The notes beneath the pieces are model-generated. The model saw only the letters and a list, made by a program, of their open reading frames with translations. It did not search any database and was not told the DNA's origin. The translations under genes and the position numbers were made by a program. This document shows, in pieces, positions 58,864 to 62,311 of a stretch of 64,000 nucleotides of DNA. Source of the DNA: Apophysomyces variabilis. Taxonomy: Eukaryota; Mucoromycota; Mucoromycetes; Mucorales; Mucoraceae. Within the stretch, counting starts at the first letter, position 1. Each line of letters starts with the position of its first letter. The stretch is taken from NCBI GenBank assembly GCA_002749535.1, contig MZZL01000409.1, positions 3,054,160 to 3,118,159 on the forward strand. Direction: 5' to 3'.

Positions 58864-59592
58864 TTAACGCGAAGTGGCGGCAGCCTTGGGAGCAAAGCCC
58901 TTGGCTTGTTGCTTGCTAATCTTAGCAGCACCTTGGGGAGCCTATGTATTCCAATATTAGCCAACATAATCCCTGCCTCAATAAATCACGCATAATGTAT
59001 CCGACTTACAGCAGCCTTCTTAGCAGCCTGAGCAGCTTTCTTGGCTTCCTTGCTCTTAGCAATAGCAGCCTGACGAGCAGCAGCACGAGCCTCGGGTTTC
59101 TGGCTACGCTTGGCACGAATGGCATCCCACGAGGCACCAACAACAGCACGGTCGTGCTTGACGGTACGGCGAGTGCGCTTCTTAGCAATTTCCTCAGTGA
59201 TACCTTTCTTGTTCAAGCGACGGTAGATCACAGTCCACTTGATCTTGCGAGGGTTCAACTTCTGAAGGAAGTAGGATTCGGCCTTGCCGTTGATGAAGCG
59301 GAATGTCTATCGATGACACGTTCAATCGTCTCGTTCTTCGTCCATCGTATCATTACACCCAACAACAATGAAAACACTTACTCTACAATAATGTCAGAAT
59401 TACTATATCCTGCTCGGTATCTACCATTGGAACGTACCTGCTATCGATACGGACATAGGTCTTACCCTTACCAGGGTAGATCTTGTAGCCAGAGAAGGAG
59501 CAAATCTCAAGCCTGTAAGAAAGTCATATTGTTAATCTTTGTCGTTCAATGGATGGCTTCGTTCTGTAGATGGATCGATAGGTTTACTTCAT
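58864..59592 (-). CDS. RPL24: 60S ribosomal protein eL24, with a one-nucleotide exon
   Basis: Large-subunit ribosomal protein at the subunit interface. Model: exon 1 59588-59592 (ATGAA), exon 2 59438-59512, exon 3 59382 (one nucleotide, A on the sense strand), exon 4 59010-59306, exon 5 58864-58941; total 456 nt, 151 aa, exactly in frame. Product: [16 protein letters not shown] at the start, V-R-I-D-S-R-T-F-R-F across the tiny exon, then N-P-R-K-I-K-W-T and K-K-R-T-R-R, all classical eL24 motifs, with an Ala/Lys-rich tail. Without the single A, exon 2 (phase 2) joins exon 4 out of frame. Introns: 59513-59587 (75 nt), 59383-59437 (55 nt, branch-like CTGAC before TTGTAG), 59307-59381 (75 nt), 58942-59009 (68 nt). 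No snoRNA boxes recognised in the introns. Confidence 0.93.
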
Positions 59593-62311
59593 CGTGCAAT
59601 CAGAAAAAGGACCGGACTACATCCATCAACGATACCAAATTAATGGCGAAGGGCGACTGACATTCAATTCGGTCATCTCGAGGTGCGGTTTGTTCCGGGC
59701 TATTTGTCTTATTTTACACTCCGACATATTTTGAATTTGGGCATCAATTTGTTCCAGAGGTTTAAGGAGCTAAGCAAAAAGGTGTGTTACAATGTGTCAT
59801 AATCATGCTTTATTTATTGAAGCATATAAATAAAAAAATCCTCCAAGCTATATTCCTTTTGTTATCTTTCAGATGCACACAGTCAATTTCTTTTGTGAGT
59901 TTTGGCTATCAGAACTTTCGGTATCAGGACGGGTGTAAAACATTTTCACTTCTCAGCCGTAGTATCATGTTTCGTGCCTATCCCAACACTGGTTGCCTCC
60001 ATTCAAAGCTTTAGTATGGTACAAGTCTTTGTTGTAGAAAAAATTGATGTGGTGACCTTGGTGCTCTCAGCAATTTGATGAACCGGCTTGAAATAAGAAA
60101 TTTTTCTATAGTGTTGGCGGTAAGGCTTCAATGAGCGTGTTTGTTTTACTTGTTCGAATGTAAAAAACAACCCATTTTCAATGACTCTTTTGCTGCTTGC
60201 GGATTGAATACTGCGGGCTGAGAACTTTTTTCGTATCGGTCCCTGCTACTTCTACACTGCATTTGTCTATATTTGTCATGGTCATTCAGCTGATTGATTG
60301 AATTTTGGGTGCTGTGCTCTTGATATATATATATCTGCCATATCAGAAGAGTGACACGGAGAATAACCTGATAGTTGACTTGATACTATGGACCTCCAGT
60401 ATTTTAAGCTTAGTGAAGGTGGCTAGGCGAGCTTTCAAGTACTTCATACAGTATGCGTTGAGTATAGTGACCAGAATGTCCAGTTGCTCCAATGAATCAC
60501 CGAATGGCTTTCAAAACGCGTATGCTGGGCGCTGAAAAGAACACACTCTTCTCTAGAAGCGAGGATGATTTCAGCGAGCATATCATTACCGTCATAATAG
60601 GATATCAGACCGAGGCTTATGTCATGAGGAATAGTTTTGCAGCGGAATTCTTGAAATCACTGAAGGACACTTTGAACGGGGTGAGGTAAAAGACCATGGA
60701 ATGATTTGACGTCGCCAAATGGTTGACTGAAGAGCGTGTGTTGGGCATGCCGACTGTGCTTATTATAATAAGACAAAGGAGGGGATCATCAGGCGTAAGA
60801 GCCATAAACTGTTTGCTACTGGTTTTCTGAAGCATCGGAGACTTTTTTGTCCACAGCCTAGTGTAACTAAAAATTGTCAAATCATGCAGGGAAGTGCGAA
60901 GGATGGACTTTCAAGCATGGATCGGATTTCACTTTCGTTCTTCCTTCTTTGCCTTGCAGAGGAAAAAGACTTGTACAGTGCCCCCGGCTAATGACAATGG
61001 CTTGGTTAGAGCCCGCTAATCAAAAATAGGCGAGGGTTGACATTAGCGGTGGTGTTGTAACAACACAGTATCAGTGGTAATAGAACTAACGGATCCACTA
61101 CTTATTGTTAGCGGAGATGCAGATTTGTATGAGGGCTTAATAATTGCAGCAGAACAAAGAAGTTGAAAATACCATGAAACCTTCCCTTATGCTATTGATT
61201 ATTACTCCTTGAATACCGTCGCTTTTAGATTTGTGTACAAAAGTTAAGACCGTTTATCATTTGCTAAAGGCTCAGTTGGTATGACTTTATGCAGCAATGC
61301 ACATTTCGTACATATCCTCAGGACTAATCTTTAGCTAGGGTGAATGAAACATCCACCCTGATCAGACTTTTCTAGGCTTTCAACGGCTGCAAATGCCGTA
61401 AAGACAAAGAATGTCTTCCTGATACATGTTCATCGACTTTTTTCTGATGGAAACAGTCGCTATGTTTTCTAGCCGCGTCCGATTAGCACCAACCTTGGAT
61501 TTGTAGCCTTGCGCATGGTCAGCAGCGCATTATACTAACATCTTGGGTATCCCCTTACTAGCTATAACAAACAATTGAAGGCTTGTTTAGAAATGCTGAT
61601 AGCTGAAGGGTTCCAAGTTATTGCTCTTTTAATCCAAAAACTTTTATGCAGTGTTCATTCTTTCAAATCTTATTAATCAGTGCAACGCTCTTCGTCAACG
61701 CACCTTTCAAAGAACGGTCATATTTTGCTTAAACATATCAATTTCATCAACAATGATTAGAAAAGTCGATAGAATCCAAGCTTTGCTCTTTTACATGATT
61801 TACTTCATCTTTCAGTTTCCGCAACGTCATAATGGAATTTCGATTTCTGAGAGTGCTAATTTTCCTTTCCTTTTCTTTCAATGTTATATACCCTTATCGA
61901 ATTGTTGCTCAGTTAACAAGTAATATTGGCATAATAAGGCTACTGAAAATTCTTTCTTAACGCGATACAATCTTATTTAGTAGGAGTACTTTGCTGATAT
62001 ACGCAAGATGCCAACCAATGCTGGCTCCCCTTTCTTGTATGCTTTTCCAAATATCCGATCCAATTTGCTTACCTTTTGCCGAAGAATATATTATTTATAC
62101 ATGCTTTTTGATAACAGTATTGATCTTTGTTCTTCACATTCTTTCATGAATATATAGCGTTTTGGGAAAGATAAACGGTCAACTGAAGTAGTTTTTCCTG
62201 ATCGGTAACATCTGTTTTTATGCAAAGCAGTAGTATAATAAGTATTTGTATGCTTTTTTTCAGCCATTTAATTAACATACAGTGACAAATTAGTCACAAT
62301 AATTCAGCAGG
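59593..62311. other. gene-poor region between eL24 and RhoGAP genes
   Basis: About 2.7 kb between divergently transcribed genes. A stretch at about 60305-60980 on the plus strand reads as protein-like fragments in shifting frames (for example 60492-60689, and later K-T-K-E-G-I-I-R-R-K), which could be a mobile-element relic, but no family is recognised. The rest is AT-rich with no gene seen. Confidence 0.45.

What the first reader, a model, noticed from the sequence alone, without database searches (positions are those of the whole stretch)
59307..59437. Predicted one-nucleotide exon in the ribosomal protein eL24 gene
Seen: exon 2 ends AGC-AG at a GTACGT donor, and the next conserved exon starts ACA-TTC right after ATAG. 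Direct joining shifts the frame in an otherwise perfect eL24. Between them lies TTGTAG-A-GTAAGT: a consensus acceptor, one A, then a consensus donor. Using it gives AGC AGA ACA TTC (S-R-T-F), which restores the expected eL24 sequence and makes the CDS 456 nt. One-nucleotide exons are extremely rare (a plant APC11 case is known). A mutation losing this splicing would disable an essential ribosomal protein, so selection on recognising a one-base exon would be strong. It may instead be two-step removal of one intron using a nested site.
Basis: partly seen in the sequence, partly recalled or inferred. Interest (0 to 1): 0.88.

Follow-up and report, generated by a model that had tools for sequence, protein, structure and literature searches.

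The report
One-nucleotide exon in ribosomal protein gene
A fungal gene for the ribosomal protein eL24 appears to carry a coding piece only one letter long, and the same one-letter piece sits in all three copies of the gene in this genome, which would explain why public gene predictions for this protein are so often broken in this group of fungi.

Summary
The window's eL24 gene (minus strand) joins into a 456-nt CDS only if a single A at 59382 is used as an exon between two canonical introns of 55 and 75 nt. Two more eL24 genes in the genome (L009, L010) have the same layout at the same codon, YAG-A-GTRNGT, although dS between copies is 0.65-0.81 and the introns barely align. Listing one- and two-step GT-AG splicing paths around the site gives exactly one mRNA per gene that encodes the intact protein, and it contains an A there. 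The internal acceptor has a CTRAY branch-point motif 11-18 nt upstream in 3 of 3 copies. RLP24, the paralogue, has one phase-0 intron where the downstream intron lies, so the upstream intron looks like the extra one. Among retrieved public proteins, 48 of 67 Mucorales/Umbelopsis eL24 models are broken at this junction, against 3 of 83 other named records, so the feature is probably group-wide. No RNA reads could be examined. It is a new member of a known kind: one-nucleotide exons are published for plant APC11 and VPS55 and Fusarium CYP621A.

The parts
59588..59592 (-). eL24 coding exon 1 (ATGAA, 5 nt)
   Evidence: same 5-nt start exon in L009 and L010
59513..59587 (-). intron 1, GTAAAC...TTACAG, 75 nt
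59438..59512 (-). eL24 coding exon 2 (75 nt), ends in phase 2 ...AGC AG
59383..59437 (-). intron a, GTACGT...TTGTAG, 55 nt
   Evidence: counterparts of 59 nt (L009) and 66 nt (L010)
59393..59397 (-). putative branch point CTGAC of intron a, A 11 nt before its 3' end
   Evidence: CTAAC and CTAAT at 12 and 18 nt in L009 and L010
59382..59382 (-). one-nucleotide exon A, third base of the Arg-27 codon AG-A
   Evidence: same A at the same codon in L009 and L010
59307..59381 (-). intron b, GTAAGT...CGATAG, 75 nt; phase 0, same site as the intron of RLP24
59010..59306 (-). eL24 coding exon 4 (297 nt), starts ACA TTC (T28 F29)
   Evidence: PF01246 match at the corresponding genome place
58942..59009 (-). 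last intron, GTAAGT...ACATAG, 68 nt
58864..58941 (-). eL24 last coding exon with stop

Best explanation
The eL24 gene carries a constitutive one-nucleotide coding exon (A, third base of Arg-27) between two short, canonical U2-type introns. Each intron has its own donor, branch-point region and acceptor. The two introns are most likely removed one after the other by intron definition, because a one-base exon cannot hold splicing factors of both neighbouring introns at once. If intron a goes first, the exon becomes ...AGCAGA|GTAAGT with a normal donor; if intron b goes first, the acceptor is ...TTGTAG|AACATTC. Both orders give the same mRNA. Intron b is the older one, shared in position and phase with RLP24; intron a was added one base upstream, cutting off the last base of the codon. 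Shown: sequence, frame, uniqueness of the solution, retention in three paralogues, the RLP24 intron. Inferred: use in RNA, order of removal, evolutionary history, presence in the rest of Mucorales and Umbelopsis.
For: Three eL24 paralogues carry exon lengths 5-75-1-297-(78/78/75) and intact eL24 proteins with the A, frameshifts without it. 4-fold sites differ at 17-23 of 59; dN is at most 0.0034; of 12 intron pairs the lowest shuffle counts are 8 and 11 of 200, so the introns barely align while the motif is kept. One- and two-step GT-AG enumeration (1209, 1127 and 46348 paths): one distinct mRNA per gene gives the exact protein. Single introns of GT-AG, GC-AG or AT-AC type (390, 428 and 1120 pairs): none gives the exact protein in any copy; of the 10 in-frame ones at offsets shared by all three, the least damaging GT-AG one loses VRIDSR through a poor donor, GTCCGT/GTCCGC/GTTCGC. 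CTRAY lies 11-18 nt before the internal acceptor in 3 of 3, against 12.5% of shuffled tails. The three A. ossiformis models retrieved, matching the three paralogues, break at this site in three different ways. 48 of 67 Mucorales/Umbelopsis models are broken there, but only 4 of 67 fail at a control position inside exon 4.
Against: No transcript evidence was available. Intron b of the window and of L009 lacks a perfect CTRAY (best TGAAC and CTAAA). The donor of intron a in L010 is weak (GTAATG). 19 of 67 Mucorales/Umbelopsis models are intact and I could not see how they were built. For other species only protein models, no DNA, could be examined. L010 has two further, weaker one-nucleotide placements that give the same mRNA. 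Three named records outside the group also fail the junction test.
Confidence: 0.93

Rival explanations
1. A single intron with a displaced donor is used, as the public models imply: donor 17 nt upstream (protein loses VRIDSR), or a donor 4 or 13 nt downstream (protein gains Y or YVPM).
For: Such forms are in public records, e.g. P0003 (YTFRF) and P0001 (DSRYVPMTFRF) of A. ossiformis. The -17 donor gives an open frame in all three paralogues.
Against: The -17 donor lacks a purine at +3 (GTCCGT, GTCCGC, GTTCGC) and deletes a segment that is present without gap in 80 of 83 other named records. The 17 nt concerned differ between paralogues only at synonymous sites. The +4 donor is absent in L010 and the +13 route is not open in L009 or L010. 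The three A. ossiformis models use three different routes.
Confidence: 0.04
2. [quoted passage not shown]
For: Layout of two adjoining introns; [D1,2] stwintrons are known in other fungi (PMC12403724, abstract start only). The reading GTACGT...TAGAG followed by A|GTAAGT can be written down.
Against: That reading gives ...AGCA|ACATTC, out of frame. Enumeration that includes donors and acceptors created by a first splice found no exact product other than the one with the one-nucleotide exon.
Confidence: 0.02
3. The site is a splicing-controlled switch: inclusion of the A gives eL24, skipping gives a frameshift with an early stop, so the exon tunes eL24 supply.
For: Skipping gives a stop as the 17th codon after Arg-27 in all three copies. 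Retention in all three paralogues.
Against: No direct evidence of skipping. Any missing small exon whose length is not a multiple of three causes a frameshift, so this follows without regulation.
Confidence: 0.1
4. Sequencing error or decayed gene copies.
For: Direct joining shifts the frame by one base.
Against: Three loci have the same layout with open frames and dN near 0. An A. ossiformis record translates the same intron bases (P0001).
Confidence: 0.01

Closest known systems
Single-nucleotide exon of APC11, Arabidopsis and land plants (PMC4674806, part 1 of 3 read; PMC8831610, passages)
   Same: One A between two canonical introns; needed for frame of a conserved protein; missed in annotation. 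In APC11 shown by cDNA and reporter mutants.
   Different: Plant gene; the fused intron stretch is longer (422 nt); different protein. Here no RNA proof.
1-nt microexon of VPS55, land plants (PMC8831610, passages)
   Same: Conserved over land plants with GTRAGT donor; missing in the reference annotations of the plant species studied there.
   Different: Some species also make a form without the exon through intron retention, and one clade of duplicates does not have it. Here all three duplicates keep it.
One-nucleotide exon of CYP621A, Fusarium (PMC12940212, parts 1 and 2 of 3 read)
   Same: Fungal nuclear gene; found through frame mismatch at a conserved motif; supported there by SRA reads.
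   Different: Base is G, middle base of a glycine codon, P450 of one ascomycete genus. Here base A, third position, ribosomal protein, early-diverging fungi, three paralogues.
[quoted passage not shown]
   Same: A single A left between two introns inserted at neighbouring sites one base apart, in a fungus.
   Different: Group II introns of the mitochondrial rnl gene, not spliceosomal, not protein-coding.
[D1,2] stwintrons of Hypoxylaceae/Xylariaceae (PMC9024468, PMC12403724, listing with abstract starts)
   Same: Two neighbouring introns needing two consecutive splicing steps.
   Different: There the internal intron splits the donor of the outer intron. Here the downstream donor is whole and one exonic base remains.

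Membership tests
Single-nucleotide exon (APC11/VPS55/CYP621A kind) | one base directly between an AG acceptor and a GT donor | tested here: met
   TTGTAG-A-GTAAGT; also GCATAG-A-GTAAGT (L009) and CTATAG-A-GTACGT (L010)
Single-nucleotide exon (APC11/VPS55/CYP621A kind) | the base is required for the frame of a conserved protein and no other canonical path restores it | tested here: met
   one product in each of three paralogues among 1209, 1127 and 46348 paths; no single intron gives the exact protein
Single-nucleotide exon (APC11/VPS55/CYP621A kind) | conserved at DNA level in homologues of the same genome | tested here: met
   3 of 3 eL24 paralogues in this genome
Single-nucleotide exon (APC11/VPS55/CYP621A kind) | conserved in other species | tested here: inconclusive
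   other species seen only as protein models, 48 of 67 Mucorales/Umbelopsis models broken at the site, 19 intact; no DNA found
Single-nucleotide exon (APC11/VPS55/CYP621A kind) | the base is present in mature mRNA between both neighbouring exons | not testable with these tools
   no RNA reads or cDNA of the species held
[D1,2] stwintron | internal intron splits the external donor between G and T, and the product is in frame | tested here: not met
   donor GTAAGT/GTACGT is whole; that reading is out of frame and absent among the exact products
Recursive splicing at a zero-length exon | AG directly followed by GT (AG|GT) at the ratchet point | tested here: not met
   one base lies between AG and GT in 3 of 3 copies
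Ribosomal protein eL24 (PF01246) | full-length similarity to eL24 rather than RLP24 | tested here: met
   PF01246 over cut-off; PDB eL24 chain E 1.4e-48 over query residues 1-151; L011 is the separate RLP24

The most novel reading that the evidence does not exclude
The one-nucleotide exon of eL24 is as old as Mucorales plus Umbelopsidales, or older, and has been kept in paralogue after paralogue since. It would then be one of the oldest and most widely distributed one-base exons known outside plants, sitting in a presumably highly expressed gene of many genomes and misread in most of their public models. The same broken signature in Thamnocephalis and Saitozyma models leaves open a still older fungal origin.
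Probability: 0.65. Interest if true: 0.78.

Novelty: new member of a known kind. Interest (0 to 1): 0.66.

Why it matters
In my searches no one-nucleotide exon in a ribosomal protein gene or in early-diverging fungi was listed, so this would be the first of both. Because it occurs in three duplicates of a presumably highly expressed gene, existing RNA-seq could settle it quickly. It offers a natural system for asking how a spliceosome handles an exon too small to hold any factor, and in what order. It also points to a systematic annotation error: 48 of 67 retrieved Mucorales/Umbelopsis eL24 models are damaged at this one codon, with deletions, inserts or exon 2 read in the wrong frame. The RLP24 comparison suggests a simple origin, gain of a second intron one base upstream of an old one, which relatives can test.

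Tried and rejected
So for other species I have only protein models.

Other YAGNGTRNGT places in the window (721-, 23319-, 25787-, 37258+, 46931+) were looked at in three frames. By eye none showed a frame gap that calls for a one-base exon; 23319 and 25787 look like ordinary splice sites next to coding sequence. This was not tested further.

Rejected: sequencing error, pseudogene, GC-AG or AT-AC single introns, [D1,2] stwintron, displaced single donors. In L010 an AT-AC pair gives a same-length protein with T28 changed to Y; it is not shared by the other two copies.

Limits of the protein count: clade labels were assigned by me from genus names (recalled taxonomy); the 'other named' set holds mostly fungi and one record named after a fern (P0167). 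Records are 90% clusters and only the best 120 per search (of 602, 304 and 1235 hits) were listed. 'Intact' means a gapless match above score thresholds that I set, not an exact motif. The third search used a query (P0027) that itself has the deletion, which favours similar deletions. With one search hits alone the counts are 44 of 63 against 0 of 49 other named and 0 of 8 unnamed. Fisher values (5.7e-20; 2.5e-16) ignore kinship between species. The first regex count gave 48 of 67 against 2 of 71 other named; those two (P0148, P0084) pass the score test. Of the 3 other-named failures, P0168 and P0169 show the deletion and P0171 lacks one residue. Of the 2 unnamed failures, P0156 does not reach the site and P0159 seems to be an ORF reading into an intron.

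Literature searches. None listed a one-nucleotide exon in a ribosomal protein gene or in Mucorales; (ribosomal protein L24 + microexon) and one search returned 0 papers; one search listed 15 of 653. One search found no microexon wording in PMC5639578. One search showed the fungal mitochondrial case; in PMC8208691 the searched terms occur only in its reference list. One search (is RPL24 dispensable) gave nothing that I read. Only openly licensed PMC papers are held.

Full report
What is there. On the minus strand of 58864-59592 lies a gene for ribosomal protein eL24 (PF01246 over its cut-off at this place; PDB L24-A chain E 1.4e-48 over query residues 1-151). Exon 2 ends in ...GATAGCAG at 59438 and the next conserved coding block starts ACATTC at 59306. 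Both borders have canonical GT/AG signals, yet direct joining shifts the frame. At 59382 a single A lies between TTGTAG and GTAAGT. Using it as an exon gives a 456-nt CDS and a 151-aa eL24; omitting it gives a stop as the 17th codon after Arg-27.

Three copies. The genome has two further eL24 genes, L009 and L010, and one RLP24 gene, L011. Both eL24 copies have the same exon layout (5, 75, 1, 297 and 78 or 75 nt) and the same one-base exon: GCATAG-A-GTAAGT and CTATAG-A-GTACGT. The copies are old: 17 to 23 of 59 fourfold sites differ, dS is 0.65-0.81, dN is at most 0.0034, and their introns barely align (lowest shuffle counts 8 and 11 of 200 among 12 pairs). What is kept in the noncoding stretch is the pair of splice signals around the A. 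In shuffled versions of the three stretches the motif with room for two introns appears in 0.8%, 0.26% and 2.15% of trials. Since the copies share ancestry this measures retention, not three independent origins. The bare motif is common in the window at chance level (6 against 5.4 expected).

Uniqueness. I listed GT-AG single introns and two-step paths, including second introns whose sites are created by the first splice (introns of 40 nt or more, from 24 nt before the end of exon 2 to 24 nt into the next block). In 1209, 1127 and 46348 paths for the window, L009 and L010, exactly one mRNA per gene encodes the exact eL24, and it holds the A. In the window and L009 only one placement exists; in L010 there are three, of which one has consensus sites like those of the other copies. 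Among single introns of GT-AG, GC-AG or AT-AC type over a wider stretch (390, 428 and 1120 pairs) none gives the exact protein. Ten in-frame options have offsets shared by all three copies: four GT-AG ones that all use a poor donor 17 nt inside exon 2, and six AT-AC ones that each cut at least 11 nt off exon 2 and 36 nt off exon 4. The least damaging GT-AG one deletes VRIDSR.

Signals. Intron a has CTGAC, CTAAC and CTAAT with the A 11, 12 and 18 nt before its acceptor in the three copies; 12.5% of shuffled tails reach that score. Intron b has CTAAT in L010 but only TGAAC and CTAAA in the window and L009. Intron a donors are GTACGT, GTATGT and GTAATG; intron b donors are GTAAGT, GTAAGT and GTACGT.

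Position relative to RLP24. The RLP24 gene has a 52-nt intron at the homologous place in phase 0, GCAAAG|GTGTGT...TCATAG|ACTTTC. That matches the downstream border of intron b. The economical history is that intron b is the old intron and intron a was inserted one base upstream. This is inference; outgroup DNA is needed.

Other species. No fungal DNA outside this genome could be reached. Public protein models were compared instead. Of 175 proteins from three searches, 67 carry names of Mucorales or Umbelopsis. At this junction 48 of 67 are not intact, against 3 of 83 other named records and 2 of 25 unnamed. All 6 Umbelopsis models retrieved are broken; 16 of 16 Mortierella relatives are intact. 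A control position inside exon 4 is intact in 63 of 67 Mucorales/Umbelopsis models. Using only one search hits, the counts are 44 of 63 against 0 of 49 other named. The breakages are of the kinds I would expect from gene finders that meet no in-frame path: loss of the end of exon 2 (GKTY-TFRF), exon 2 in the wrong frame (RFAPSPATRS-), or inserts. Of 12 inserts picked out, 6 begin R-V-[RSC], which is what AG|A followed by a donor GTNNGN reads; the window's own copies would read R-V-S, R-V-S and R-V-R. This could also come from a phase-0 donor without the microexon, so it is supportive only. Of the other 6, 2 begin R-Y, 3 begin S and 1 is RR. The three A. ossiformis models retrieved match the three genes here (window copy identical apart from the insert; over the exon 4-5 part L009 123 of 123 and L010 122 of 122) and each is broken differently. 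19 of 67 models are intact, so correct models exist, but how they were built could not be seen.

Mechanism. Best reading: two short introns, each complete, removed one after the other by intron definition; the base is left between them. The order is undecided; both orders leave normal sites. Skipping the base would give a frameshift and early stop, so selection should hold the sites in place. Essentiality of eL24 in this fungus is not shown, and with three copies loss of one may be tolerated.

Known relatives. One-nucleotide exons are published for APC11 (PMC4674806, part 1 of 3 read), APC11 and VPS55 across land plants (PMC8831610, passages), and CYP621A in Fusarium, presented there as the first in a fungal gene (PMC12940212, parts 1 and 2 of 3 read). 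A fungal mitochondrial rnl gene has a single A between two group II introns at neighbouring sites (PMC12308204, passages). The eL24 case is not a [D1,2] stwintron and not a zero-length recursive site. My searches listed no report in a ribosomal protein gene or in Mucorales.

Verdict. Observation confirmed; interpretation supported without RNA evidence; new member of a known kind, with a good chance of being a group-wide, old feature that public models have largely missed.

Noticed in passing
protein records P0168 (Thamnocephalis sphaerospora) and P0169 (Saitozyma podzolica): eL24 models outside Mucorales with the same loss of the end of exon 2 (GKTYSFRL, GKTYTFRF); the same splicing problem may exist in other fungal lines. 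Found with a query that favours this form.
   Followed up: no
L011 1537-1588, minus strand: RLP24 gene has a phase-0 intron exactly where intron b of eL24 lies.
   Followed up: partly
window 59588-59592 and counterparts in L009 and L010: First coding exon of eL24 is only 5 nt (ATGAA) in all three copies; public models often miss the proper start too (31 of 67 Mucorales/Umbelopsis models lack MK[LTIV]E[IL]).
   Followed up: partly
protein record P0007 (Rhizopus microsporus): Counted as intact, but reads DSRYFKF where several relatives read DSRTFKF or DSRTFRF, so it may be a disguised wrong splice model.
   Followed up: no
protein records P0118 and P0122 (Lichtheimia): Inserts RVSIW and SVLNPFRLYCR could be the two flanks of the same one-base exon read through from either side (LNP fits a CTAAC branch point, YCR fits TGCAG-A).
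   Followed up: partly
window 58944-59660, plus strand: A 238-aa open frame runs antisense through most of the eL24 gene; probably only a by-product of its codon use.
   Followed up: no
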